Shown one piece after another: positions 2,055 through 51,451 of a stretch of 64,000 nucleotides of DNA. Positions within the stretch are counted from its first letter, which is position 1. The number at the start of each line of letters is the position of its first letter. The DNA comes from Lasiosphaeria ovina. Its lineage: Eukaryota > Ascomycota > Sordariomycetes > Sordariales > Lasiosphaeriaceae. Location: the NCBI GenBank assembly GCA_033439765.1, contig JAULSN010000006.1:2232001-2296000 (forward strand). Direction: 5' to 3'. The position numbers and the translations under genes were made by a program. The notes below the pieces were generated by a model. It saw only the letters and a list, made by a program, of their open reading frames with translations. It was not told the origin of the DNA and searched no databases.

Positions 2055-4380
2055 TCGGCTCTCTAAATTATTAACCCTCTAACGACTACTATTAACTCTT
2101 TATTATAAATTAGATAGTTTAACTCGGCTCCGTATATAGTTTCTAAATAGAATATAGTAGGATACTATTCCTTATCGTCCGTCTATAGTTAGGATAGTAC
2201 TCCTACGTAGATACCTCCTAACGTATCGGTTTCTATCCGGGTCGGTAGCTCGTAAGAGAAGTGCCGAAGTATCGGGGCGGATATAAGTTTATCCTTCAGC
2301 TCTTCGAAGGCTACTTAATAGTCTTTAGACTATTTAAATACCTGGCCTTTCCTCGTTAAGCTAGTTAGGGGTTTAGCGATATAGCTATAATTCTATACGA
2401 AGCGCCGGTAGAAGTTATAATATCCTAAGAATGACTATACTCCTTTAAGGTTACGGGGAACGCTCCAGTCCCTAACGGTAGCCACTTTCTCGGGGTCTAC
2501 CGCTATCCTAGTCGTAGAGATAATAAATCCCAGGTACTTGGTTTTAGTAACGTAGAATTCGTACTTCTTTAAGTCGGCTTAGAGTCCTACTTATCTTAAG
2601 CGATATAGGACTTTAGCTATATAGGCCTCGTACTCTTCGGGGTTCTTAGAGAAGATAAGGATATTATCGATATAGGCGCTATAGAAGTCGTCTAAGTATC
2701 CTAATAAGATCTCGTTAATATATCGTTAGAAAGTTACTAGGCCGTTAGTTAGGCCGAATAATAAGACCCGGTATTTATAGGCCCTATATCTCGTCCGGAA
2801 GGTTATAAGGTCCTCGTCCTCTAGACGTATCCGGATCTTATAAAAGGCTTGCCTAATATCGATCTTAGTAAAGATTTTGGCTTTCCTAATACGAGCTATA
2901 GTCTCGTTAATAAGTAGTAGGGGATATCGATCCTTTCTCGTTATTACGTTAAGTCTCCGGTAGTCTATGTAGAAGCGTATTCCGCCTCCTAGCTTTAGAG
3001 CGAGTAATATTAGCGCTACCTAGGCTATTAAACTACTAGTAATAAATCCCTTTACTAGGTTCTCTATAATATATTATTTAGCGATCTCCAATTCCTCTAG
3101 GGATATCTTATAGAGTGGACTATACCCTAAGTCTTTAGGGGCTTTACCTTTAGAGAGGGTAATCTAATAGTCGTACGTCCCCCGGTATTCGGCTAACTTA
3201 TCGGAGGTAGCTTTACTAAATACGTCGAGGTAGTTATAGTAGACCGGTAGGACGAGTTTTAGGGCTTACTCCTTAAGGTTCTACTTATCTTAAGCTAAGG
3301 GATCTAGTAGTCCCGGATCGCCGAGGGGTATCCGCTTAACCTCGATAATTTGCTGAATCTCCTAGAGGCTAATATATATAGTAGGGGTCTTTTTTATATA
3401 GATCGTAAAGGTTACCTCGTTTACTACGGCGATATCGGGAGGGCGCTCCTTATACTAGCTAATATAGTCTCGCTATATCCTATACCTCCCGAACTTATCT
3501 TCTAGAGGGTAGTCCAGTTTTCGGTCCCTAGCTAGGTTCCTTCTTAAGGTAGCTAGGTCGGGGGCCTCTAGGTTCTTTAGTAGTAATTCCTACTAGAGGT
3601 CCCGTTCTATTACCTCTAGACCTTCGTCCTATAAGACCTTCTTTCTCTTCTTACTTAACTTCTAAAGGATAGTTACCGGTCCTTAGGGCGATCTAGGTCT
3701 CGGGGTTATTAAAGGGAGTATTTCTCGTTCCGCTTTCTAGTTCTCGAGTTCTTAGAGCCTCTTCTTAATTACTTCTCCATCCCTTTATCTCTTAATCTCC
3801 TTTTCTAGTAGTATATTCCGGCGGTCTATATCGGCTTAATAAGATAGGTCGGGTAGAGAGTCGGTTATATGGTTTATCGATATAGTAGTCTATATAGGGG
3901 GGTCTAAGGGGAGGTCTTCGGGGAACTCGAGGACTTTAGTCTTAGATCTAGTTTTAATATTATATTTTTCTAGAAACTTATCTCCGATAATAAGGTCGTA
4001 GTTATTACCGGTAACGATTATCGCCTCGTATCGGAAAGTCCGGCCTTAGATCTTAATATCTCCGTAGAGGATACTATTAATCTTCTACTTTCCACTCCCG
4101 TCGTACCCTCCTATTTAGGCGGGGTTAGCGGCGTACTTAACTCGGTCGAGGTGGAGAAATTTCCTTAATCGTTTAGTAAAGGGGATACCGATAAAGATAT
4201 ACCCGGTTACTCCCGTATCTATAAGTATATTAGTAGTAGATAAAGATATTCTATTATTTACTATAGTATAATCCGCGAGGAACTTAGGTCCCCCTAATAA
4301 GGGTTTCTAATTAATAAATTTGCCTAAATCGTAATATATTAAGGATACCTTCCCTAGGAGGGAGTTCATATTCCCTAGGG
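2055..4380 (-). pseudogene. pol: Gypsy element B pol (protease, reverse transcriptase, RNase H), RIP-inactivated
   Basis: Read on the minus strand from about 4350 down, an aspartic-protease-like region comes first, then reverse transcriptase with recognisable blocks (a DYRxLN block near 2960, IDxRxAFYxIR near 2870, YIDN at 2664-2675, LGFIIS near 2540). RNase H follows, with ETD near 2250 and an ELNY-KEL block near 2100. The order PR-RT-RH and the motifs are those of Ty3/gypsy. RNase H stops abruptly at 2055, where the LTR of element A begins, and no integrase is present in the window. Many in-frame TAG stops stand where Gln or Trp is expected, and the second catalytic Asp of the YxDD box is Asn, a TpG-to-TpA change. 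It is dead. Confidence 0.88.
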
Positions 4381-6252
4381 TCTCTAGTTTTCCGAATCGC
4401 TAGAAGTATCGGAGCTAGTAGAACCGGAATCCGTATCGGCCGGCTTCTCCTTCTTATTCTTACTCTTACTAACGGAGGCTACTAAGGGCTTCTTTTTATC
4501 CTAAGCTACCTTATCTATAGCGGTTTTCTCGGGGTACTCTAATTTAGTATATCCGAGGTTACGGTAATAGAAGTAACGACCCTCCTTAATAAATTAGGCG
4601 ATTTCTTCCTTACTAAGTCGGCTTCTTAATAGTCCGGATCCTTTAGCCGTAGGCTATATAGTAGGGGTACGCCTTACGTTACTATTACTATTCTTAGCTC
4701 CGGAAGGGGTATCCTTCCGACGCTCCTATCCTTATTTAAGACTTAGGGATATAGCTAAGGCTAAGCGAGTATACTTCTCGAAATTAATACTAGGGTCTTC
4801 GTAAGAGACTACGAGGTTAGTCTAGAGTATAATAGTTAACTTACGCTTGAACTCGCGCTTCTACTTAGACTTAGGCTTCCGGTACTACCTAGCTAGGCGA
4901 ACGAACTCGTTCTTAAACTTAGGAAAGTCATCTCTAGGTCGAAAGACTAGTTTCTCGTACTTAGATAGGGCTTCGTCTTCCTCAAATTAGTCGTAGTACT
5001 TATTCTATAGGTGACTTAGTAATTCCTCTAAAGTAGTAATCTAGTTAGGGGTGCCTATTCTTATATAAGGAAGGAGGTTTAGGGCTACGTCTCTACCTAG
5101 TCGTCCTTAGATATAAAAGACTTTAGTCCTATTAATAACGAAGTAGTCTTTATTTCCCTCTAACTTATTCTCTATTAGTTAGTACTATATATTAAAGGTT
5201 ACCTAATCCTTAGACTTATTTACCGAGAAGACCGGGGGGTCGGTCATTTTGGTACTACGATCTATCTTAGATCTAGCTAAGACCTCCGTTACGTTAGTAA
5301 GGGGGGTAACTCTACGGCTAGTAGATCTCTATCTTAAGGGAGTAGGAGGACCTTCCGTAGTACGTGGGTTCGGGAATATATTAATAAGATAGGTCGCGAT
5401 TACGGCGTTAAGGCTCGTAATTTACTTACTTAGTTTCTTCTTATCTCCTTAGAGACTTACTACTTACTCCTAGATATCTTCTTTCTTATTTATAGTACTA
5501 AAGAGTTCATCCTTAAGACGCTTAGCCTAATCGTTAATTAAGGCTAAAAAAAGAGTTATCTTATCGTATATTTATACGATAGTACGGTCGAAGTCGATAG
5601 CGACCGAATAGAGGTCTATTACCTACTACTTATAGGCGATTATTATATTATAGCGTAACTTGAACTCGATGAATATACTCTCTAGGTACTTATAGACTAG
5701 CTTGGTAAAGTTATTATAGTCTATCTAGCCTTCGAAAGGGATCTAACCCTCGTTAGCTTCTATAAGAACCTAGAAGGGAATAACTAGGGCCGTTTTTCCG
5801 CTCTAGGGGTTAACGTCTACCAAGGTCTATAGTCGGGCTACTAGGTCTTTAACTAGGTCTTCTATCGTATTAGTAAAACGAATATCGGGAAGAAGACCCT
5901 TTATTCCTTAGATCCATTCTAATAGGTTCTCTAGTTCAGGTGTTCCTAAACGACTACCCTAGGGACTTCCTTGGGTAGTTGCTATGGCGTAATCGATACT
6001 GATACCGACTACCGTCGATCTTCGACGTAGCGAGGTATTAGGTCGACGCTTATCGCTATTAATAAAGCTCTCTACGGCTTCTAGGTCAAACCTAACCTCC
6101 TACTAAGTACGCTCGCGCTCAGGCTTCGATATTAAAGTGCTCTGGGGTATGATATCGGTAGTACGTAGCGATCGCGCCGCGTATTAGTTCTGGGGGGTTC
6201 TAGGTTCCTGACGATTCTTCTCGCGTAGTCGTACGCGATCGTCAATTAAGGG
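4381..6252 (-). pseudogene. gag: Gypsy element B gag with ablated zinc knuckle
   Basis: This minus-strand region between the LTR at 6253 and pol holds a CX2CX4HX4C knuckle at 4535-4580 in which all four metal ligands now read Tyr (frame YFYYRNLGYTKLEY). Each change is TGC to TAC or CAT to TAT, exactly what RIP produces. Stop codons are frequent. The N-terminal half would be the capsid region but is too altered to align by eye. It lies upstream of pol on the same strand, as in a normal gypsy element. Confidence 0.78.
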
Positions 6253-6545
6253 TGGGATATTATTTGGGCCTTCCCAGGCAAAGGAAAAGAGCTTAGTTAA
6301 ATATGAAGGCAGGCACATACGAGAGGCGAGGCTATAAGTAAATAGTGACTAGATTCGTAGATAACTAAGCTAAAGAAAGGAAAAGGAAAAGAAGAAGCCT
6401 GCGTACCCTATAGGCTGGCAGTTTTGTGGTGGTATGCGGGGTCGTGGCCCTAGTCCCGATTGGGAGGAGTGGGGCCTTCACATTAGGGCTTGCAGCTAGG
6501 GCATGGTTGCGGCACCACGGACCTCAGTTCGGCCGTGCCGTGACA
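6253..6545 (-). repeat. 5' LTR of gypsy element B
   Basis: The minus-strand sequence begins TGTCACGG and ends ATATCCCA, so it has the TG...CA ends of an LTR. It sits directly upstream of the gag region. In contrast to the internal region it is rich in CpA/TpG, so it was largely spared by RIP. The matching 3' LTR is not in the window because the element is cut at 2055. Confidence 0.7.
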
Positions 6546-6611
6546 GTTGGTCTATATAGAGCAACCAGCACCTACGTTATATTCTACTTCCTTCCCCCCT
6601 CTTAGAGATAT

Positions 6612-8560
6612 TTATTTACTAGTATAGGATATACTAATATAAGATCTAGATGGAAATGCGGTAGAGGCTACCGGCTCCGATCCATAGTCCGACCCCGAGC
6701 TAGAAGATGACCCCTCCGACTTTGAGTTCGTACTAGGTAACGGCCTAAATTCGGAATCGGAAACGGCCAATCTTCCCAGGCCTACGAAGACGCTCCAGAC
6801 ACCGGTTATGAACGAAGCCGAGCTAAATAATAGTCTCGCGAAGATAGGGTTTGATTTATCCTTCATAGACGACCATAGCGATATCCACTAGGTTAATAGC
6901 CTTCTATCGATATTTTCGACCCCGAGGTACTTAGTAAATAAGATTTATAACTTTTACCTTTAATTAAAGCGGTAGTTAGAGGACCGAATATACGGCGAGG
7001 CCCTTATCGATATTAGTCGTTTTATAATACTTATAGACGATACGTAGGATACCTACGACCTAATAATTAATATACTTTAGAACCAGCTTCTCGTATAAGT
7101 ATAAGATATTATAGGCTAGTCATTTCCTATTAAATATATAGTTAAGCCGTTAGGACCGATAAAGGCTATTTACCATATCCTATAGTATTACCCTACTTTC
7201 TATACTAATAAGGAAGATTACGGGCACGTTATAGACTAGTTAAATCCATCTCTTCTAGTATAGGTGACTAAGATTAGCGCCCCGCGGATAGTTAGGACTA
7301 CTAATTTTATACCTATATAGTATAAGATAGTCTACTCTAATAAAAGCGTAGCTTAGGAGGATATATTTAGGTAGTATTAGCCAAAAATCCGCTAGCTATT
7401 TCTGGACTTTAACTACTATCTTCTACTCCAAGCTCTAGTTTCTCTTATTCTTGGTAAATATACTAGTAAAGTTTTCTCCGAACTACTTACTAAAGACCTA
7501 TTATATCTTATCGAAGTAGTTAGTATTAAAGGTCTTACTTCGAAAAACTCGCGATATGAATTCCTCATTATTCGCTCCTTAGCGACTTATTATATCGAAA
7601 ACTTGGTTTTCTTTTCATTTTACGGATCTTACGCTCTTTTTAACGGTATAGGAATATCCTCTTCTATCGTTATAGATATAGTATAGAACGGCGTTTATAC
7701 CCTCTCGGGCCTCGATATCCAGAATGCGTCCTGGTTCATATGGCGAAGGGCTCGGGGTCGGTAGGCCGGGACTAACCCCTACTAAGCCGCCCAAGTTACT
7801 ACGGGATACCCCAACCTCAGGAAGGGGCGCGAAATTCAAGCTACCTTAGGTGATCCCCACCGTAATAAGGCCCGTAAGATTCACGCTACCCTCGGTTACC
7901 CTGGCCTTAGGAACGGCCACAAAACCATAGCTATTAGCGGCTATATCCACCTTAAGAAGAACGTCGAGGCTTAAGCCGCTATAGGCTACCCCGGCCTCCA
8001 GAAGGCGTAGGCTATTACAGCCGCTACGGGTTATCCTAATCTCCAGAAGGCATACGTAGCTAATATCGCGTTAGGTTATGCTAGCCTCTAGAAGGTATAC
8101 GAGGCTAATATTACTTTAGGTTATCCTAGCGCTAAGGCATATATAGTAAAGTTCAACGCTAGGAGACTTATAAAAGTCGACGTACTTCGAGATATAATAG
8201 AGATTAGGCAATTCCTGGCTTAGGAGCTAAAGGGTATAATCGAAAAACGACTCCATACTAAGTAGGAACGGGTATAGAGTAAGACGGCCTCGTAAAATAT
8301 ATAACGCAAGATAATAAAGAAGAATACTATATAGTATTACCCTACGGATATACTATTTGGAGTACGTTAGTAGGGCGATGGAGGACCGCTATTTAACGAG
8401 GCTAAGTATAAGAGTAAACCAAATCCCGTAATCTCTACTAGACTAGTAAGGGATATACTAACTTGGGCTAAATAACTACGTCGCGAGGTAACTATTATAA
8501 CTCTTATACTACTTATTATTAAGCTAACGGATAGTATAGTAGGAGAAGGAGAACTAGCCT
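6612..8560 (+). pseudogene. RIP-decayed gene of unknown function with 15-residue tandem repeats
   Basis: A plus-strand frame runs from about 6640 to 8560. It is interrupted mostly by TAG codons where Gln or Trp is expected, as RIP makes. The N-terminal third is acidic (Asp, Glu and Ser rich), the middle is not recognisable, and 7804-8118 encodes seven copies of a 15-residue GYPxLxKx8 unit, followed by a charged tail. I do not recognise the family. The repeat resembles short helix-turn repeats seen in some fungal and mobile-element proteins, but that is only a resemblance. The gene lies between a gypsy LTR and a FunK1 kinase pseudogene. It may be the N-terminal part of the same locus or a separate gene. 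Confidence 0.5.
7804..8139 (+). repeat. 45-nt tandem repeat encoding GYPxLxK units
   Basis: Seven complete 45-nt units and a partial eighth start at 7804, 7849, 7894, 7939, 7984, 8029, 8074 and 8119. Each begins with a Gly-Tyr/Asp codon pair, usually followed by Pro-x-Leu-x-Lys. The phase is kept without indels, so the units were selected as protein before RIP acted on them. Confidence 0.75.
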
Positions 8561-35206: not shown

Positions 35207-38200
35207 CTAGAGCCCCGAGTCGGACTCCACCGCCTCCGGGTCGAACCCCATCCCTCTCGCCGCCTCCAGGAATCCGGGCCTGCTCGCGAGTTCTGATTTG
35301 CTCAGGGCTTTCATGAGGGTGGAGAATTCGCTATATTCACGCCGGAGGTAGCGGATCGCCTTGCTCCACGCCGCCCCGGCGTCGAGCAGGAGCACAGCGA
35401 GATCAGAGTCCACTTGCAGCGCGAGCGCGAGAGGAGTCCCACCGTTCATGTCATCTGCATCAACCGTAGCGCCGCGCTTGAGAAACATCTTTATCATGTC
35501 TGGGCTCTTCCTCCGCACCGACAGATGCAGCAGCGACTGTTCAAGGTTCTCGTTCCGGTAGCCCATGCCGTCTACGTTAGCGCCTCGGTCGAGGAGTTCG
35601 CCGTGATCGAACCGGCAGGCAATGTGCGTTAGGGGGTACGTCGGATATTCCCTCCGCCAGTCCAGGATGGATGCTTCGTAAGTCTCAGATAAGATGTTGC
35701 TGCCGCCTTTGACCGTCTTCAGATGGCGCTCTACAAGCTTGGCCTGGCCGGCCACGACGCTCGCCAAAATCGGCTCGTATGACCAATCGGAGGACTCTGT
35801 CTCGACCGAACTTGCGACGGCCGGTTTCAGCCGTCCGGAAACTGGAGTCCATAACGAGAAGTACATTTCGGAGAACCTATTGTCAATATCGACGGGCCCA
35901 GACTCGGCCCCGTCGCCGCGGAAGTCCCGCGCGAATCGAAAGTGTGCGAGCCAGTTTTCCGTCGCGTAGTCCAAGAACTGGTGTGTGTTGTAGGCTTCGT
36001 AGGAAAGGACCCTTACGCCCTCCTGCTCATTGTAGAACTTGGGGTTCGATGCTAGCTCGTCCATGGCCAAGTAGGCAATGCAACACTCGGCTGCTCTGGC
36101 GTGCGCCGACCGGTCGGAAAGGCTGCCCCGGAGGGAGCGTGCCGAACCCTCGGCTTTGCCTGGGCGATTGGCTTTTTCGTACCGGAGGTACTCGCTGGCG
36201 CTCTGGTGGATGAAGTAGAGCTGGCCGCCATACACGGACACGAAGAACCCACACGACTTGATGACCCATTCTTGGAAGTCGTCGTCCGACATCAGATCCA
36301 TTTCGAAATCTTCCTGCGACCGAATGGTGGTCTCCTCGCTGAGGTGGATCGTCGTCGCCTCGTTCGCTTCCCCGACGGTGAGCGGCCGTCTCGCGTTGGA
36401 CGCATAGATCAGATGCAGCAGCAGCCGGACGCGCGCTTCGTCCGCCTTGTTGACAAACACGAAGAGGCTGTCGTATGCGTCGAAAATAGACTCTGGAGGG
36501 TGCGTGATAATGGCCTCCCACTGTCGCTGCGTATTGACCGTCGCCCGGTCCAGCGCCTCGAAGACTAGCTTCACCCAGAGGTAAGTGCGTTGGCCGCGGC
36601 CGGCCTTTTCAAGCAGTGCCAAGAGGTTGTCGCGAACGCGAGAGTCCTTGCCCAGGCGGGCTGGGTGCTTGCTTGCGAATCCGGCGAAGCGGGTCTTCAT
36701 GGCGCCTTCTATCTCGTCCTGCAGTAACTTGCTCCGCTCTTCGTCTTGTGCCGAGATGTGGGGGAACTGTCCGCCAAAGGGATTGAACGCCTCCCTGATA
36801 CGAGGGAGTCCACGCGCGGTGACGAGGAATTTGACTAGGGGGCGGGAGGACGGTGAAAAGAGCCATTTGACCAAAGGCGTCAGATGCTCGGGCTCGCACT
36901 CGTCCAAGGCATCCAGGACGCAAATGACCTGCCCAGCCAGTTTGGTACACACTGCTTTGTTGAATATCTGTCCCAGTTCGCCCAGATTCCCCATCAGCGC
37001 CGACCCAGCCTTGTCGATGTCGTACTCGACGTATTCCACTATGCCGGGGTGGCTGCTCAGGAGCTGGTGAAGAAGGGCCCGAATGCCGTTCGTGGCCTTG
37101 CGCTGCTCTCCCTGGTTGTCGAAGAAGTAGTGGCAAATCTGCTCATCCGGCCACTGCAGGCGGAGCTCCTCCTCGATAAGCAAGGCCGACAGGACCGATT
37201 TGCCACATCCAGGTGGCGCCGATACCAGGAGCACATGGGCGTCTTTGGAATGCAGCCACTCCAGATACCTGTTGTCTCCGAGAAACCACCCGCATGTGTC
37301 TGGGGCGCGTTGCTCAAATAGATCTTCCGAGTTCTTGTTGGTTTCCTTCCTGCAACATGCTAAACTGCGCGATCAAGCGGCTTCGTTCCTTGGTCACCGC
37401 CCTTTGAGAGCTCCTCTCACGACTGTTTGCCAGCGCATTCATGCCCGTATTCACCAACTCAAGATACTCGGCCGATGCCAGCTGGTACTTCTTGAGAACC
37501 TCGGTGTTGTACTGCGTCATGAAGCCGTTGAGCTCCCCTTCGGCCGCCTCGATGGCCTTGCGCTGGTCGTCCCAGGCATTCTAGCCCACGAGGTTCTTGA
37601 CCACGTTCCTGCGGCTGTGGCAGGCTTTGACGCAGTTCATTTCAAACAGCAGCATGGCCTCATAGAGCGCCTGGATGTTGCGAAACAACTCGCCTCTGAG
37701 CCGGCGGAACTCGCCGTCCTCTTTCCACTTATCTCTGAGCAGCAGCGGCGCCAGGTTCATGGAGATCCGCATGCGGCGTATCACGTAGTCGAGGGCCTCG
37801 TGCATTTTCTTGTTCTCCGTGATGGGCTTGAGCAGAAACTTGCCGACCAAAGAGTTAGCCTGCGCCGATGCTATCGCGTTCTCCCTGGGACCTGCTTACC
37901 GGTGTGATGGTGCAAAAGCCTGACCATGCCAGCGCCGCGGCCGGATATACCTCCAACAATGCGCCGACATTCTCCCGCGCGGCCTCGATCAACTGCATCA
38001 TCATGCTCGCGGCTGCCTCGAGCTTTGGGCGGCTCTGGGCCTTTTGAAGCGACTTGTCCGAGGACGCCCCTCATGAACCTCAACCGCTCTTCCCCACTGC
38101 AGCCCTCCAACTTGTCCCGAGTCGCCGACGGCCCATACTTATACTGAAGGAGAATATCCTCGTATTTGGAGACCAAGAGGGGGTCAGCATTTTTGAGAGC

Positions 38201-41349: not shown

Positions 41350-41505
41350 ATGTCGTGCATCAAGGCAACATTTTGCTTGAGGAGAACTAAACCCACGGCG
41401 GACAGGGGCGCTCCGACCACGCCACCAGGTCAGACATCCCTGACCCTCGCGTCTACCGGTAACCAGCACGCCGTACCCACTACCGACCACTCCCTGAATC
41501 CAGGC

Positions 41506-41720
41506 GACACCGCCACTCCTGTCCCTGGCGATGGCCAGGAGACGGCCCCTCCCGTCCCTGACGATAGGCAGGAGACCCCCCTTCCCGTCCCAGCAAGTGG
41601 CCATAAGGACCCCCCTCCTATCCCTGACGATGACCAGGAGACCCCCTTTCCCATCCCTCGCGATAACCAGGAGACCCCTTTTCCCGTCCCAGCAGGTGGC
41701 CGTGAGGAGCCCCCGCCAGC
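41506..41720 (+). repeat. Proline-rich minisatellite in the NLR N terminus
   Basis: About six imperfect 36-42-nt units encode variants of PVPDDxQETPL (for example PVPGDGQETAP, PVPDDRQETPL, PIPDDDQETPF, PIPRDNQETPF). They vary by codon replacement and small length change but keep the frame. This looks like a flexible linker. Confidence 0.75.
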
Positions 41721-42862
41721 TATGCCAACCGCCCTGCGAGATCTCTGGGAAGAAGCCAAGGGCAAGCTGGACGAAAAGGACCAGCTGAGGCTTTCCAAAA
41801 TCAGCGATCAACTCGCAAAAGCTCGGCATCCTAGCTCACAGCCTAACCCAGCGGGCAGCTCTTCCACCGATGACATCGATGCAGTCATCTCAAAGGCAAG
41901 GAACATGAGGGATGAAAAGAGAAATGCCTGGCAGCCGGTAGGTTTTGCTCTCTATAGTTAAGTGTCTTTCGCCTTTGAATAATCTTACTGATGACGCTCT
42001 CATCAGTATATCGACAAGATCGTCGACGCCGCTGTCAGATTCAAGCAACTGGGCGATGCTGCCATGAAACTCGACCGGTCAGGGTACGGAGCCTTGGCTT
42101 GGTCCGTCGTGTCTTTTGGCCTTGAAATTGCGAAGAATGCCAAGGATGCCCACTCCATCATTCTTACAAGCTCTGATACCATCGCTCAACTACGGTCGAG
42201 ATACACCGAGTACGAGAGTCTCTATAGAAGCGAGGTAACCGACAGCAAGTTTGAAGACCGCATTGTGGACGTATACAAGGCCTTGTTCTTGTACATGATG
42301 GCAGTGAATGACTACCTCCAGCAAAGCGGGTGGAGTACGGCCACCCGCGTCATCCCTCCAAGCGCAACCTACTGACCTCGATTTTACTTAGGCCGCTCTG
42401 CTCACGCAACCGTATCAGCTGATGACCGAGACGTTTCGGCCAAGAAGAAAGAAGTCGAGAGGGTGGGCAAAGAAGTTGATAAATACGTAAGATGGTACTT
42501 AGCTAGAACGGAAATTTGGTCAGAGTTATTGACACTTTTTTAGATCAGCCATATCGTCCAAGAGAAATACGCGAAACGTCGAGTCGAAGAGATAGTAGAA
42601 CGGATCGATGCTCGTGAACAACTCGAGATTCTCGATTGGATCTCCAAGATGCCGTACGGATCAAACCATATCACGGTCAAGGAGGCTCGGACCCAAGATA
42701 CATGCGACTGGCTGTTGCAGTGTGAAGAGTTCGGTGAATGGTCGAATGGTAGCTCCGTGATCCTCTGGCTACAAGGCTCTCGTAAGTGCCTATTCAGTCC
42801 CTCTCCGAGGCTTCTGTCACGACGCTGACTAGATAAATTACCGCAGCTGGCGCCGGCAAGAC

Positions 42863-42867
42863 ATTTC
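42863..42867. repeat. Target-site duplication ATTTC, left copy
   Basis: ATTTC precedes the left LTR. The same five bases follow the right LTR at 48513-48517. Together they date the copia insertion to a single integration event. Confidence 0.95.
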
Positions 42868-43040
42868 TGTGGCCAGGCTAGCAGGGATCAGGCCGGACCC
42901 CGGCCTGATGCCCTCAAGCCGAGGCATAAGTGGATATGGGATCCACCGGTCCAGGCCATCACTTCCACATATATATTCCGCTGTGGCCCAGATAGCTAGA
43001 CTTCCTCCAAGCAATCCAGTCCTTACCTTTCCTCCCAACA
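42868..43040 (+). repeat. Left LTR of copia element
   Basis: 173 bp from TGTGGCCAGG to CTCCCAACA, with TG...CA ends. By eye it is identical base for base to the right LTR. CpA/TpG are frequent, so it is not RIP-mutated. Confidence 0.96.
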
Positions 43041-43049
43041 GGTTATGAG
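43041..43049 (+). promoter_or_regulatory. Primer-binding site, half-tRNA type
   Basis: GGTTATGAG directly follows the LTR and is complementary to the anticodon-loop segment CUCAUAACC of initiator tRNA-Met. Drosophila copia and some fungal Ty1/copia elements use a cleaved half of this tRNA as primer in the same way. Confidence 0.6.
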
Positions 43050-43267
43050 TTCCCGTCGCTTCAACAATTGAAGCTATTCCCACTTTTGTTTACAGTCCCT
43101 TTTCGACCCTGCAGCACATCCGATCACCGGAACTACCGATTCCCCGGACCTGCACGTCCAACGTCGAATACCTACGGCCCTCCCTACGGCCTGTAGCGCT
43201 CCCGGAAGGCCCACACGCGCCCTCCACGTCCCTATCCCCTGTCCCTGAAGTCATCGCCAGCCCTGCG

Positions 43268-46200
43268 ATGGTCAAAGTCAAGGTCCCTGAATTGAAGGGC
43301 GACGAGAACTTCGTCGCCTGGAAGGTAGCGATCCGTAACGCCCTCGGTTCTACAGGCCTAATTACATACATCGAACCGATCACACCGCCCGGAGCCACGC
43401 CGGCCCCGACGGTAGGCATGCCCACACCCGCTATAACCTTCACTATACCGGGCAGCATCACCCCGGGCAGCATCACCCCGGGCACCGCCACACCCGGCAC
43501 AGCCACATCGGGCACCGCCACACCGGCATTCGCCCTCGACTCTACGGAATACCTAACCTAGTATACAGGCCGCTGTACAGCGGCAGGAATTATTATAACT
43601 ACCCTTACTAATCCTATAGTGGTTCAAATACTTCGTTAACACGGCTGGTCATAGGCAGAAGAAGACCCGAAGGTCACGTTTGACCTGGTCTACCGCACGA
43701 TTCCGAGTATAGGCAAGCTCTCCCGCCGCGAGCTCCTACGAGAGTTTTCCTCCCTCCACCGTAAGGACTTTGACATAATATACGGCCTAATTAACAAGCT
43801 ATAACTCCTCAAAGACCAACTCCAAGCCATAGGTATGGTCATTAGCGACGACCAAGCCCTCTAGAACGCCCTCAGCTCCGTTAAGAATATATACCCTAAC
43901 GACCTACTACTATAGGAATACTAGATTAAGAATAAGAAACTAAACTAGTAAGGTTTCCTATAGATCCTCAACATAAAAGCCGACAAAGAGAAGCGCTCCG
44001 GTTCCTACCTCCAGCTACCCAAACCGATAACCCCCTCCTTATAGCCTACCTAATAGGCACCCTCGAATATATAAGGAGAGAATAAGAAGGGCGGTAGGGA
44101 GAAAGAATAATATAGCTAATATATAACCAAGATCCTAAAGAGCTAGAAATATCATAAGCCCTACGGTAAATATATCCCGGCTAGAAAGGAATGCTTCTGG
44201 TATAACCCCTAGGTAGCTCCTAATACCTAGAGGTAGAAAAGGGAAGCTATGGCGGCCAAGGCAGGACCTTCAGGTACGGCTATAATGCTATAACACAACT
44301 CGAGCGGCCTCGCCGGCCCCGAGACCTCGAACCTCCTATTTGGAGGAAGCTTCTATACTAGTCCGCAGCCCCCTCATAGCGACCCTGAGGCTTCTACGGA
44401 GCAGGATTTTCACCAGAGCCCCCGGCGGAACCTCTAATAGCTACGACCGAAGTCCAATAGGCTCTTAAGGCAATAGAGATCAACAAAGACACAGTCATCT
44501 TCGATATAGGCGCTTCAAAGACCTCATTCAACAACCTCAAGTAGTTCACGAAGCTCAGCCCACTCGCCCGTGCATAGCAGTACGGCGGATCTACCGGCCA
44601 TACGGCCAAGTCATTCCATATCGGTAACGTCAAACTATCGATACACACAGGCAACACGTATCGGGATGTGCATCTCGGGCAGGTATATTACTACCCGGAA
44701 ACCCCGGTCAACCTCGTGAGCCCTATATCCCTCTCTCTCGTAGGCCTCATATAGAATATAGAGGACAATAGGGTCCTAGAGAAAGGAAGCAGGAAGCCCG
44801 TAGCCGACCTTTAGTGGGTAGGCGGCCTACCAGTCTTTCTATATATCACATCTCGCGACCTACCACCTAATATCACGGTTCGTAAGGCTCTACTAGCCTC
44901 GATCATATACGAAACGATACACCGGCGCCTCCTCTATACTAACCCGGAAATCGTCGTCAAGGCCTATAATAGAGCCGGCATCAAGATCACAGGCGTATAT
45001 AATAAAGACTTCTATAAGCCCTATATTCTCGGGAAGGTAATAGACCTAATCGATAAGAGGACCGAGGTAGTATATAACGCTCCGCTTAACTTTATTAGAG
45101 TTAACCTAATTACCTACCGCAAACCCGGCCACCTCGGCCAACGTTACACTACCCACTTTATTAATATTTACTCAGGCTATTATTAGATTCGTTTTCATAG
45201 AGAAAAGAAGCAGGCCTTTATCGAGCTAGTACAGCTCGTTAAAATGGTCGAGACATAGTCACGAAGAAAGATCAAGGTTATCGGTATCGACGGAGGTAGC
45301 GAATTCGGATAGGCTACACACGAGTTCTACGACTCCAAGCTCAATAGATAGGCTAAAGAAAAGGGTATCGAGATATATAACACCCCGCCTAATACTCCGT
45401 AGATAAATAGAGCATTAGAAAGGGCGGGTAGGGAGATCATAATAAGAGCGAGAGTCCTAATAATCGAATACGGTATTCCTAAACACCTTTGGCTATTCAT
45501 AGTTAATATAACGGTCCGGGTTCTCAACCTGCTTCCAATATAACGTAACGAAGGAAGCAAAAGCCCTTATTAGGTTATATATAAAGGACTTAATATATAT
45601 CATAGCCTTTACAAGCTATTCATTAAGCACCTACGCTCCTACTACTACGCGGCTTACTTCTATAGAAAGAAGTAGACCCGTATAGACTCCGACAAGTTCA
45701 CACCCCGCGCAATAGAGGGCAGGCTCATCGGCTACGGGGACCTCTACAGTAAGATCTACTAGATCTATAAGCCAAAGGAAGGAAAGATCATTCGCGCCTC
45801 GGCCGTTAGGTTTAACGAGGAAGACACGCCGTCTACTTTAGAAGGTAATAAGGCCGAATACGAAGTTATATTCGAAGACTTAACCGTAAATGAAGTTAAG
45901 AGAGCAACTAATATAGAGATCGACATACCAACCCCGGCCTTACCAGCACCTACCCGGTAGGCATCGCCGCAAGCCGATAAACATACGTACACGCCTCCCC
46001 GCGAACCCTCCCGCCATTCTACGGCATTCCCATCCCCAGAGACTACCCCGGGCGCCTTACAAATCGGTACACCTAAGCCGCCCTCGCTCATACCGGTTAA
46101 GGACCTCGGCACCGTACCTATCATCATAATACGGCACCAGAGCACCCTCAACACCACGCCGCGCGTATCCACAACGGCCCAGCTACCGGCACGGCCCTCA

Positions 46201-48171
46201 ATACGAGCCTCACCTAATGCCCCGCCGCCCTCCCCGCCTATACGTGACTCTATTCAGGTCCGGTTCGCGGAAGAGGATAGAGAGCCTTTCTTCGAAGCCG
46301 AAGACATCGCCGACATCATGGAAGAAGCCCCGGTACCTGCCTTACAACCCCTAGCAGCGAGGACAACGCAGTCCCCGGCTATAAGGGCCGCAGCCCGCCT
46401 TCCCCCGGTCCGGAAGCGACCAGCACCAACGGTAACGCCAACAGCCGCCGCCTCAAGGCCTCGCCGCCCGCCCAAACCACCACCTAAGTCTATATACCTA
46501 GTCCATAAGGTCCCTATATAGCACTACGAAGTCGGCTTCCTTTTATTAGTAACACAGGCCATATATAACCTAGCTACCTAGTAGAAGCTAGAGATCCCCA
46601 AGAATCTTCGAGCCGCCTAGAAGACCCTAGATTACGATACCAGCTAGCTACCTACGATGAAGTTATAGATCAAGAGCCTCAAAATAATACAGGTCTTTAC
46701 CCTCATTAATAGGCCCACCGGAGTACTAGTGCTACCCGGGAAATGGGTATATAATACCAAACTCGAAACAGCTCTTAACGAGTGGGTAAAGCGAGCCCGC
46801 TTTGTGGTCTACGGTAACCACGAAGAAGACAACTAGGCCCTCGATAATATATATGCCGCCGTCGCTAATAGTACTAGCGTAAAGTGCTTCCTTATTATGA
46901 TTACGGCAAAGGGCTATAAGCGTAGACAATTCGACTTCAAAACCGCCTTCCTGAATACTAACGTACCTGAGGGAACCACCATCTACGTTAAATAACCTCC
47001 CGGTATCCCCAATACTGACCGTACGAAGGTTTGGCTCCTCAATAAAGCCCTCTACGGCCTGAGGAAGTCTCCGCTCTACTAGTTTGATACTATCGTTCCC
47101 TTCTTCAAGGCCCTTAGCTTTATACCCTTCGGCTCCGACCTATGCCTTCTTAAGCATAGAGAAAAGGACCACTATATTATCCTCTACGTGGATAACTTCA
47201 TTATTGCCGCTCTAACTAACGAAGAAATCGACCAAGTCCGTAATAGTATTATAGAACGGTTCGAGATTAAGGATATCGGGGAGCCCATAAGGTTCCTAGG
47301 CATTGATATCTTCTGGAGTAATAACAATACCACGGTTTCCCTCTTATAGGAAGCCTATATCGACCTTATACTCGGAAAATTCGGCTACCAAGACCTTAAC
47401 CCGACTAAAGCTCCCTAGCCCTTACGCATTGAGATCCCCAGAATCTGGGACCCTCTCTATGAAGAAATAAAGGCCTATATTAAGAAGACCGGCTCCCTGA
47501 ACTTCCTTATATATAATATAAGACCTGATATCGCCTACACTATCTCCAGGCTATATAAAGGTAATAGCGGCCCTTCTAAGGAATACCTATAAGTTATGAA
47601 GTACCTATTTCGCTACCTAAAGGGTACCAAGTACTTAACCCTCATATATAATTATAACCTTAACCTTAATAATATGAGCTTCATAACCTATGCCGATGCC
47701 TCCTTCGCCGACGACCTTCTATATCGCTACTCCACCGGCGCCCACGTCGTTTTCCTAGCCGGCTGCCCGGTATATTGGAAGACGAAGAAGCAGACCTACG
47801 TAGCACATAGCACCACTGAGGCAGAGTTCACGAACCTCACACCCGCCTCACAGTCCGCCTAGTGGATCAATGAACTACTCAAGGACTTCGGGGTATACCA
47901 ACCACTTCCTATTATGTTATTTACTAATAGCATGAACGCCAAGATCAACGTCATGAACCCCCTTAATGCAGCCCGCACTCGCTATATCGATATACGATAC
48001 AAATGGATCATTAATAGGGTTAAGAAAGGCATGATCAACGTGACTCACATCCCCGGGACCGAGATGGCTGTAGACGGTCTCATAAAGCCGCTCAGTGTAG
48101 AAAAACACGCTCATTTCGTTAGAATGCTAGGAATGGAGGCACACAAGGTGCCCTGGCTAGTCAATAACTAA
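43268..48171 (+). pseudogene. gag-pol: Copia gag-pol, RIP-inactivated
   Basis: Gag starts at ATG 43268 (VPELKGDENFVAWKVAIRNAL) and holds a PGSITPGTATP low-complexity stretch at 43445-43530. Then come a protease region, and integrase with IDGGSEFG near 45285 and a KALERAG-type core. Next are a Pro-rich spacer (near 46200-46480) and reverse transcriptase (FDFKTAFLN near 46935, YVDN at 47185-47196). RNase H with YADASFADD near 47690 and a terminal TRYIDIRY-KWI block end at TAA about 48171. The order IN before RT defines Ty1/copia. Dozens of TAG/TAA codons stand where Gln or Trp is expected. The RT box has Asn for the second Asp. RIP signs are dense from about 43600 to 47650 and weak outside that range. 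Confidence 0.92.
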
Positions 48172-48330
48172 CGACAAAGGCTCAAGGGGGTGGAAAGGCC
48201 ATTTTACGATGAAAATACTGATTGGAAGGCTAGCTGAGCGGAACTTCCCGAACACACACTCAACACCAAGGAATTATCACCATACTGTATTTAGACATAT
48301 TTTACAGCCTCACTTGGAAGATTCTGGCCT

Positions 48331-48339
48331 GAGGGGGTG
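48331..48339 (+). promoter_or_regulatory. Polypurine tract of copia element
   Basis: GAGGGGGTG immediately precedes the right LTR, the expected place for plus-strand priming. Confidence 0.7.
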
Positions 48340-48512
48340 TGTGGCCAGGCTAGCAGGGATCAGGCCGGACCCCGGCCTGATGCCCTCAAGCCGAGGCATA
48401 AGTGGATATGGGATCCACCGGTCCAGGCCATCACTTCCACATATATATTCCGCTGTGGCCCAGATAGCTAGACTTCCTCCAAGCAATCCAGTCCTTACCT
48501 TTCCTCCCAACA
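48340..48512 (+). repeat. Right LTR of copia element
   Basis: Same 173 bp as the left LTR with no difference seen. Followed by ATTTC at 48513-48517 and then by the NLR frame. Confidence 0.96.
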
Positions 48513-50320
48513 ATTTCTTGTATCAAAGGTCATCGATTATGTTCAAACCCAGTCCGAAGCTTCACCAGCAGAAGGATTTGCCTTTTTCTACTGCAACCGG
48601 AACGAAGAGGATCGCAGCCAGCCACTTTCTGTCCTACGGAGCTTTGTCCGCCAGCTATCGCACGAGATGGGCCGGCCTGGGGAATTACGCAGAAAGCTCC
48701 GAGATCTGCACCGCGAACTGAAGCTTAAGGGCTCGGACCTCAGCTTCGAGACCTGCAGAGAGCAGCTGCTCGAGTCGGTCAACCTGTACCCAAAGACTAC
48801 TATTGTCTTAGACGCACTGGATGAATGCAAACCTGAATCGCGTTATCGGCTCGTTGACACGATTGATTTCCTCATGGCCAATGCCCGTCATCCCCTCAGG
48901 GTCTTTATTTCAAGTCGGCCTGATGCCGACATACGGGACCGTTTCCTCTCCCGGCCTCACATCGCAATCCAGGCAACTGACAATCAAGATGACATCGAAA
49001 AGTTCGTCAACAAAGAGATCGCCAAACATCTACGCTGGAACAAGATGTCGCCGGCCCTGCGTGGAGATATTCTCAAGACCCTTTTAAATCAGAGCAGCGG
49101 CATGTGAGTGTCCCGAGAGAAATTGGGAAGCAACCAATGTATCCCTGACTTTCTAATACCGAGATAGGTTCCAGTGGGCAAACCTGCAAATCAAACAGCT
49201 ACTCAATCTCGAAACCTCAGCAGCGATCCGGGACCGGCTTGGAAAATTGCCTCATGACCTCAAGGAGGCATACGACGAAATATACGCCAAGATTGCAACT
49301 CGGAACGAACACGACAGAATCCTAGCAGACCGTGCCTTCATGTGGGTCATATGCGCCGCTTACCCGCTAAGGAGCTCCGAGCTTCTCTCTGCGATTCTTC
49401 CGGACCCGGACAAAGAGAGCTTGGGCGAGTCTGAGGAAGTCGACGATGCCCTCCTATTAAACATATGCAATAATCTGCTTGTTCTCGATCCCCAGAGAAA
49501 AGTCTGGCAATTCCCACACCTGTCCGTCGCTGAGTACTTTGAAGAACACCACTTCAGCCGTCTGCAGGCCGATTGCTATGTCACCAAAGTTTGTCTAGTG
49601 CTTCTCATATCATGCGATTATCAACTCCTCGGTTCCGGTAGCGACAGCGAAAGCCTCAGCCATAGCGAAAGCCACAGCCACAGCAAACCGCGCAAGTTGC
49701 GGCATCCAAAGCACAATCTTCAGATATACGCCCGGCATCACTGGCTTGTCCATATCAAAACTCAAGTCTCACCGGAAGTTGATTCCGTATTGATCCAGCT
49801 GTTGAAGTCCTTCCTCGGCTCCATGAACCAGTGTAGTTCGCAATGCCGGTATTGGCTCCAGAATACAAGATCAAGATTACAGAGTCTTTCTACACCAATG
49901 ACATCTTTTCTTGGGACGTTTAGAGTTTCCGAAATCCCTGACGAAGCGACCCCTTTGTGGGCCATGTGCCTCTTCTCCAGCCATACCCTTTTGTCGGACT
50001 GGTGGGAAAGTGCAGACATCGCGCTAATAGCGCAGCATTTGGGAACACACACTCCAGTGGGCCTTGCTGCCAGAGCAGATCTCCTGCCTGTCTGTGAAGC
50101 ACTATTGAAACAAGCAGCTGATGTCGGCCTAGCAATCCAGCCTAGGCAATACAGCGGCTTTTTAATGGAAGCTATAGATGCACCACAGGTCGAGATTGTC
50201 AAGATCCTCCTTGAGAGGGGTGCCGACGCGAACCTAGATCACGAAGGGCACTTTGGTAGCCCGTTGGTCATGGCAGCAGCGGATGGAAATACTGAGGTCG
50301 TTGAGCTCCTTCTCAAGAGT

Positions 50321-51265
50321 GGTGCCGACGTAAACCAAGTGCTCCAGACTGGACATTACGGTAGCGCGTTGGCCGCGGCAGCAGCGAGTCGAAATACCAA
50401 GGTCGTTGAGCTCCTTCTCAAGAGTGGTGCCGACGTAAACCAAGTACTCCAGACTGGATATTACGGTAGCGCGTTGGCCGCGGCAGCAGCGAGTGGAGAT
50501 ACCGAGGCCGTTAAGCTCTTTCTTAAGAGCGGTGCCGAAGTAAACCAAGTACTCCAGACTGGAGATTACGGTAGCGCGTTGGCCGCGGCAGCAGCGAGTC
50601 AAAATACCAAGGTTATTGAGCTCCTTCTCAAGAGCGGTGCCGACGTAAACCAAGTGCTCCAGACTAGAGGTTACAGTAACGCGTTGGCCGCGGCAGTAGC
50701 GAGTGCAGATACCGAAGCCGTTGAGCTCCTTCTCAAGAACGGTACCGACGTAAACCAAGTACTCCAGACTGGACATTTCGGTAGCGCGTTGGCCGCGGCA
50801 GTAGCGAGTCGAAATACCGAGGTCGTTGAGCTCCTTCTCAAGAGCGGTGCCGACGTAAACCAAGTGCTCCAGACTGGAGGTTACGGTAGCGCGTTGGCCG
50901 CGGCAGCAGCGAGTGGAGATACCGAGGTCGTTGAGCTCCTTCTCAAGAGCGGTGCCGACGTAAACCAAGTGCTCCAGACTGGAGATTACGGCAGCGCGTT
51001 GGCCGCGGCAGCGACGTATGGAGATACCGAGGTCGTTGAGCTCCTTCTCAAAAGCGGTGCCGATGTAAACCAAGTGCTCCAGACTGGAGATTACGGCAGC
51101 GCGTTGGCCGCGGCAGCGACGTATGGAGATATCGAGGTCGTTGAGCTCCTTCTCAAGGGCGGTGCCGACGTAAACCAAGTGCTCCAGACTGGACGTTACG
51201 GTACCGCGTTGGCCGTGGCAGCATACTGGGGACGGAAGAGATGCGCGGAGGATTTAATAGCCGCC
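50321..51265 (+). repeat. Near-identical 105-nt ankyrin repeats
   Basis: Units of exactly 105 nt (35 residues) start at 50321 and repeat at 105-nt steps to 51161. Eight are almost the same (GADVNQVLQTG...), and the ninth diverges after its first half. Differences cluster at residues 12, 22-25 and 27-30 of the unit. A shorter, older unit precedes (50219-50320) and one follows. The period exceeds the usual 33 residues by a two-residue insertion in the beta-hairpin. Confidence 0.93.
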
Positions 51266-51451
51266 GGGGCCGACATCAATCTCAAGCTAGAGAACAAACG
51301 TTGGGGAACGGCGCTCCAGGCGGCGCAGTTGTACATCTCAGACGACCAAAAAAAGTATTGGTGGGATCGACGGGACGAGGAAGAACGAAAGAGAGACAAA
51401 GCCGATGTAGTAGAGCTACTTGGGCACCACGCCGCAGCTATTGACGTTTAG

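What the first reader, a model, noticed from the sequence alone, without database searches (positions are those of the whole stretch)
42863..48517. A copia retrotransposon sits exactly in the Walker A motif of an NLR
The left flank reads GSPGAGKT-Phe and stops in the next codon; the right flank resumes the same reading frame after the ATTTC duplication, and Walker B follows 97 codons later. All seven coding pieces of the host gene are open and joined by good introns. The receptor would be intact without the insertion, so this is a fresh, single-event knock-out of a putative self/non-self receptor and should segregate as a presence/absence allele.
Basis: partly seen in the sequence, partly recalled or inferred. 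Interest (0 to 1): 0.9.

Follow-up and report, generated by a model that had tools for sequence, protein, structure and literature searches.

The report
RIP-scarred retrotransposon splits a fungal NLR
A young jumping element has split a fungal immune-type receptor gene exactly at its ATP-binding motif; the insertion is real and the gene looks otherwise whole, but the fungus's own mutation defence has since riddled the element with stop codons, so the event is recent yet probably not brand new.

Summary
A 5,645-bp element with two identical 173-bp LTRs and an ATTTC duplication splits a NACHT-ankyrin receptor gene right after GKTF. All seven coding pieces are open, with GT-AG introns. One detail is wrong: the left frame reads Phe-Leu-Trp-Pro-Gly, then TAG.

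The genome carries at least 27 young insertions of this family, 27 of 27 with exact 5-bp duplications. Among 16 internal copies, 980 of 984 variable columns are C/T or G/A: a recent burst, then repeat-induced point mutation (RIP). The window copy has 50 in-frame stops and the eighth-lowest RIP load of 16. The insertion has most likely passed through sexual cycles: 'fresh' in years, not in generations. RIP largely spares the LTRs, so LTR identity is a poor clock.

The Walker A position is probably coincidence: the family prefers a weak palindromic target, and 115 of 4,451 positions in the gene score as well. Three of 26 other young insertions lie in NLR loci (expected 0.24-0.48), against 0-1 of 29 further, mostly older sites. 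Segregation and receptor function are untested.

The parts
41350..41937 (+). host NLR exon 1 (start codon at 41350)
   Evidence: open frame, GT donor at 41938
42007..42334 (+). host NLR exon 2
   Evidence: open frame, GT-AG introns of 69 and 57 nt on either side
42392..42486 (+). host NLR exon 3
42544..42781 (+). host NLR exon 4
42847..42867 (+). host NLR exon 5, left piece: Walker A (P)GAGKTF
   Evidence: NPHP3_N profile 1-37 ends here
42863..42867 (+). target-site duplication ATTTC, left copy
42868..43040 (+). 5' LTR, 173 nt
   Evidence: 100% identical to the 3' LTR
42879..42881 (+). TAG that ends the left host frame, after Leu-Trp-Pro-Gly
43041..48339 (+). internal region of the copia-like element, RIP-mutated; 23 in-frame stops in the gag frame (one, at 44435, is in all 16 copies and is probably the natural gag end) and 27 in the pol frame
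   Evidence: RVT_2 match on piece 47083-47346 at E 6.1e-07, below the curated cut-off
48340..48512 (+). 3' LTR, 173 nt
48513..48517 (+). target-site duplication ATTTC, right copy
48518..49103 (+). host NLR exon 5, right piece; Walker B LDALDE at codon 97 from 48520
   Evidence: NPHP3_N profile 40-164
49168..51451 (+). host NLR exon 6, ends in a stop; carries the ankyrin repeats
50255..51223 (+). ankyrin array: 9.2 copies of a 105-bp unit, 89% matches
35207..37372 (-). second NLR-type ORF about 4 kb upstream (NPHP3_N 110.6 bits, weak Ank); neighbour, not part of the split gene

Best explanation
A copia-like LTR retrotransposon inserted once, by ordinary integrase action at a weakly preferred palindromic site, into exon 5 of an otherwise open NACHT-ankyrin (NLR-type) gene, directly after the Walker A motif (GKTF|L). 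Shown: insertion, duplication, frame on both sides, family burst, RIP marks. Inferred: the gene no longer makes a working receptor, because translation ends four codons into the LTR and the P-loop is cut from Walker B. Inferred: the donor was little or not RIP-mutated, and RIP then mutated this copy in place over one or more sexual cycles, chiefly in its middle, largely sparing the LTRs and not reaching the host exons. Inferred: LTR-LTR recombination, common in this family (11 of 27 young insertions are solo LTRs), would leave 178 bp with an in-frame TAG, so the lesion would stay.
For: Identical LTRs, exact duplication, frame continued across it. At least 27 young insertions in the genome, 27 of 27 with exact 5-bp duplications. 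980 of 984 variable columns in 16 internal copies are C/T or G/A; 684 of the 980 are in CpA/TpG context. 0 of 59 pol-frame stop positions are in every covered copy; stops per copy run from 9 to 77. Overlap of the window copy's changes with each of the 15 other copies is close to what column frequencies predict (z -1.4 to 3.2; largest excess 188 shared against 172 expected). RIP share 51.7% of sites mid-element against 2.9% in LTRs (23 of 800). Host exons beside the element have ordinary CpA/TpG content. Left-out target score of the window site lies in the top 2.7-2.8% of window positions.
Against: No transcript data, so loss of function is inferred. No second allele in the assembly, so a single event is argued from sequence only. 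Not one of the window copy's stops is unique to it: each recurs in at least one other copy, as hot sites would give but as a shared pre-mutated ancestor could give too; some other pairs share more than expected (largest z 4.8). 296 of 980 transition columns are not in CpA/TpG context by my measure. The copia label rests on RVT_2 at E 6.1e-07 and a weak gag match (E 0.0095), both below curated cut-offs; only pieces between stops were searched.
Confidence: 0.87

Rival explanations
1. The element was already RIP-mutated when it jumped (mobilised in trans by another copy), so the insertion could be as fresh.
For: LTRs are identical and the host gene is clean. All stops of the window copy recur in at least one other copy, and small excesses of shared changes exist between some pairs.
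Against: None of the 15 other copies carries the window copy's set of changes as a block; the largest excess is 188 shared against 172 expected. The donor would have to be outside the 16 copies compared.
Confidence: 0.1
2. The truncated gene still works as a shorter protein: 423 N-terminal residues plus four LTR residues, with an N-terminal domain freed from its NACHT control.
For: The left part is open to a stop four codons into the LTR and weakly matches NACHT_N (28.1 bits against a cut-off of 30).
Against: No expression data; the insertion is young, so an open left frame says nothing about selection.
Confidence: 0.08
3. The family seeks NLR genes, so that these knock-outs are not accidental.
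For: 3 of 26 young insertions other than the window's lie in NLR intervals, expected 0.24-0.48, binomial p 0.002-0.012; with the window's, 4 of 27.
Against: 0 or 1 of 29 further sites. One of the four genes was already broken in its NACHT part. Insertions in dispensable genes survive more often, so survivorship alone can enrich NLRs; this was not modelled. The integration motif is not NLR-specific, and another insertion splits a gene of the NADH:flavin oxidoreductase family. No second transposon family was tested as a control.
Confidence: 0.12

Closest known systems
crapaud LTR retrotransposon of Podospora and RIP (PMC10787394; passages seen)
   Same: recent bursts, many solo LTRs, RIP in full copies and few or no RIP mutations in most solo LTRs
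   Different: there the LTRs (339-443 bp) of full copies are RIP targets; here the 173-bp LTRs of full copies are largely spared (2.9% of sites against 51.7% mid-element)
NWD/het-D/het-E NLR genes of P. anserina and their pseudogenes (PMC1805685; passages seen)
   Same: NACHT genes with near-identical C-terminal repeats; members lost; one pseudogene is preceded by a transposable-element relic
   Different: there two losses are by RIP of the gene itself and one is put down to an inversion; here the gene is clean and split by one element
T-NACHT/ankyrin NLRs of Sordariales (PMC12258605; passages seen)
   Same: NACHT Walker B of the hhhhD[GAS]hDE kind (IVLDALDE fits) and ankyrin repeats; 10-162 NLRs per genome
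   Different: this genome has about 138 merged NPHP3_N loci and its order is not known here; the passages seen do not treat transposon-split receptors
het-B haplotypes of P. anserina (PMC10890737; passages seen)
   Same: LTR retrotransposon insertions at an allorecognition locus that differ between haplotypes
   Different: there the insertions lie between genes; here the element splits a coding exon, and allorecognition is not shown

Membership tests
LTR retrotransposon, copia type | two LTRs with TG..CA ends and a short target duplication | tested here: met
LTR retrotransposon, copia type | copia-type reverse transcriptase (RVT_2) | tested here: inconclusive
   47083-47346 matches RVT_2 at E 6.1e-07, 29.7 bits, under the cut-off of 31.6; 46837-46992 at E 0.0011; pieces between stops only
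LTR retrotransposon, copia type | integrase upstream of reverse transcriptase | tested here: inconclusive
   no Pfam match on the two upstream pieces searched, 44818-45183 and 45403-45540
fungal NLR (NACHT type) | P-loop NTPase with Walker A and Walker B | tested here: met
   GSPGAGKT and LDALDE; NPHP3_N above cut-off on both sides of the element; the NACHT model itself did not match at E 0.001
fungal NLR (NACHT type) | C-terminal superstructure repeats | tested here: met
   Ank_2 216.9 bits; 9.2 x 105-bp array
fungal NLR (NACHT type) | recognised N-terminal domain | tested here: inconclusive
   NACHT_N 28.1 bits (cut-off 30), DUF7708 21.4 bits (cut-off 25)
fungal NLR (NACHT type) | role in self/non-self recognition | not testable with these tools
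   needs fusion tests between strains
RIP (repeat-induced point mutation) | C-to-T/G-to-A only, mainly at CpA/TpG, in repeats and not in single-copy neighbours | tested here: met
   980 of 984 variable columns are transitions; 471 of 613 C/T columns before A, 213 of 367 A/G columns after T; host exons ordinary
RIP (repeat-induced point mutation) | happens in the sexual cycle | not testable with these tools
   recalled, comes from no call

The most novel reading that the evidence does not exclude
A copia-like family that is still young in this genome preferentially lands in NLR genes, and RIP then freezes each element in place, so that transposition plus RIP works as a generator of permanent NLR null alleles that segregate in the species and change who can fuse with whom.
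Probability: 0.1. Interest if true: 0.75.

Novelty: new member of a known kind. Interest (0 to 1): 0.42.

Why it matters
It gives a clean candidate null allele of a fungal NLR with two clocks: the RIP load of the element follows sexual cycles, transversions follow years. The 16 copies form a graded series of RIP decay from one burst. The dome-shaped RIP profile, with the LTRs nearly untouched, warns that LTR divergence is a poor measure of age for short-LTR elements under RIP. If other strains have the empty site, the two alleles make the receptor's role directly testable.

Tried and rejected
Considered and dropped: (1) That the element moved as an already RIP-mutated copy: no block of shared changes; but since none of its stops is unique to it this stays open as a rival, and I raised its odds from 0.07 to 0.10 and lowered the main reading from 0.90 to 0.87 after that recount. 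(2) That its stops are read through or edited: 0 of 59 pol-frame stop positions are in every covered copy, and the two least mutated copies have ordinary composition (TA/AT 1.04-1.09), so no special reading is needed. (3) That Walker A itself is the target: 115 of 4,451 positions of the gene score as well, and the other three NLR insertions lie elsewhere in their genes. (4) NLR targeting: suggestive in the young set, not seen in the further sites.

Limits and rows dropped. The LTR searches scored 40 of 92 and 40 of 91 candidates, NPHP3_N 150 of 189, HET 150 of 315, NACHT 89 of 125: lower bounds. NLR intervals rest on NPHP3_N matches only. The 29 further sites are mostly older, but one of them (on C28) has 0 mismatches in the 35-mer; their duplications and flanks were not looked at. 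They were left out of the target-site and RIP tables. An 890-nt internal fragment (L027), which I take as part of the C5 copy with nested inserts, is not in the 16-copy tables. (internal part) use the 14 copies with more than 5,000 covered columns, without C27 and C5b. One search counted 15 of 792 LTR sites; BLAST had trimmed eight changed end sites, so the full count is 23 of 800. RIP-able sites changed in every copy cannot be seen. The context count uses the commonest neighbour base.

Led nowhere: paper searches returned no papers; in the listings of 47, 49, 51, 55 and 58 (12 of 15 papers listed in 58) I saw no report of a retrotransposon splitting a fungal NLR.
Full report
What is there. 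At 42868-48512 stands an element with two identical 173-nt LTRs and an exact ATTTC duplication. The host gene runs from 41350 to 51451 in seven coding pieces with five GT-AG introns of 57-69 nt, all pieces open. The left part ends ...GSPGAGKTF, the right part continues LVSKVIDY... in frame. Pfam gives NPHP3_N, split between profile positions 37 and 40, ankyrin repeats (Ank_2 216.9 bits) and a sub-threshold NACHT_N. The ankyrin array is 9.2 copies of a 105-bp unit with 89% matches. A second NLR-type ORF lies at 35207-37372 on the other strand.

The family. A search with the LTR returned 40 scored hits of 92 candidates, 21 of them 100% over the full 173 nt. From these I assembled a list of 27 young insertions, 16 with internal sequence and 11 solo LTRs; 27 of 27 have exact 5-bp duplications. 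A 35-mer of the LTR with up to 3 mismatches has 74 places in the genome and 0 in the reversed control; 43 belong to the 27 insertions, the other 31 were grouped into 29 further sites, mostly older.

RIP. In 16 internal copies 984 of 5,299 columns vary; 613 are C/T, 367 A/G and 4 anything else. C/T columns stand before A in 471 of 613 cases, A/G columns after T in 213 of 367; the other 296 are not in CpA/TpG context by this measure. In-frame stops per copy range from 9 to 77; the window copy has 50 (23 in the gag frame, 27 in the pol frame; one gag-frame stop is in all 16 copies and is probably natural). No pol-frame stop position of 59 is in every covered copy. Most positions recur in several copies: 4 of 59 (pol) and 3 of 35 (gag) occur in one copy only, and none only in the window copy. 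The two least mutated copies have ordinary composition (TA/AT 1.04-1.09). I read this as descent from a little-mutated source, then RIP copy by copy at hot sites. The window copy has the changed state in 337 of 980 columns, eighth lowest of 16. Its overlap with the 15 other copies is near what column frequencies predict (z from -1.4 to 3.2); among all pairs the largest z is 4.8, so some shared history of other copies is possible. RIP in fungi acts in the sexual cycle (recalled), so the insertion has most likely passed through at least one.

Edges. The changed share of RIP-able sites is 9.7% and 15.7% in the first 173 and next 226 internal bases, 36.8%, 51.7% and 46.4% in the body, 27.7% and 15.0% towards the 3' LTR (14 copies). 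In the LTRs of elements it is 15 of 792 in the aligned parts, 23 of 800 with eight end sites that BLAST had trimmed, and 0 of 275 in solo LTRs. Host exons beside the element have ordinary CpA/TpG content. Identical LTRs thus say little about the age of this element. In Podospora's crapaud, LTRs of full copies are RIP targets (PMC10787394, passages seen); there the LTRs are 339-443 bp.

Age. Four transversion-type columns in 82,115 compared internal bases, none with the change in the window copy, is about 5e-5 per site; the LTRs add one in 5,519 bases of elements and two in 1,903 bases of solo LTRs. At 1e-8 to 1e-9 substitutions per site per year, a third of them transversions (recalled, not sourced here), 5e-5 would be roughly 15,000 to 150,000 years as a family mean. 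The 5.6 kb of the window copy alone is too short for a tight limit.

Why this place. The 27 sites share a weak palindrome, A at -6 and T at +6 from the centre of the duplication at 81% after symmetrising. Left-out scoring puts 25 of 27 sites in the top 10% of window positions, median 1.8%; 20 draws of 27 random sites give medians of 0.22-0.81. The window site is in the top 2.7-2.8%, rank 115 of 4,451 within its gene. The Walker A position is permitted by the motif but not singled out by it.

NLR share. The genome has 149 NPHP3_N matches, 138 merged loci, 77 NACHT matches and at least 150 HET matches. Four of 27 young insertions lie in NLR intervals (local-shift p 0.0005-0.0059 by interval width). 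Because the window's was the case given, the fair count is 3 of 26, expected 0.24-0.48, p 0.002-0.012; for the 29 further sites it is 0 or 1, p 0.32-1. The three others: on C5 after a NACHT domain, by eye at an exon-intron border; on C27 in the esterase-like N-terminal part ahead of a NACHT; on C32 in the WD40 part of an NLR that is already broken. A further copy on C29 ends about 20 bp beyond the stop of a HET-domain ORF. Survivorship in dispensable genes can explain this and no other transposon was tested, so I do not claim targeting.

Verdict. A real, single, recent insertion that most likely inactivates an NLR-type gene; ordinary in kind. Segregation and receptor function remain open. Of the literature I saw passages of PMC12258605, PMC1805685, PMC10787394, PMC10890737 and PMC12543289; in the listings of my ten paper searches I saw no report of this event, which is a statement about those searches only.

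Noticed in passing
42868-48512 and the other copies: RIP is dome-shaped along the element: about half of RIP-able sites in the middle are changed, 2.9% in the 173-bp LTRs.
   Followed up: yes
L010 (C5:138500-147800), element at 2091-7736: Another copy of the family sits in a second NLR gene, by eye at the exon-intron border after its NACHT domain.
   Followed up: partly
L019/L038 (C27:5184028-5196720): A copy with nested inserts splits the esterase-like N-terminal part of a NACHT gene.
   Followed up: partly
L011/L040/L041 (C32:778775-784419): A copy lies in the WD40 part of an NLR that already has stop codons in its NACHT domain.
   Followed up: partly
L018/L039 (C29:222898-229594): A copy ends about 20 bp beyond the stop of a HET-domain ORF.
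   Followed up: partly
L016 (C12:558081-563725): A copy splits the C-terminal part of a gene of the NADH:flavin oxidoreductase family; the part on the other flank was recognised by eye only.
   Followed up: no
L020/L021 (C30): One copy is inserted into another copy of the same family.
   Followed up: no
44435-44482 and the other copies: The gag frame ends in a stop present in all 16 copies and pol lies in a different frame (one base back), which suggests a frameshift or separate translation.
   Followed up: no
genome G000: Very large receptor repertoire: about 138 NPHP3_N loci and at least 150 HET matches (315 candidates).
   Followed up: no
50255-51223: Ankyrin repeats nearly identical to each other, like the near-identical repeat arrays reported for some fungal NLRs.
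   Followed up: no
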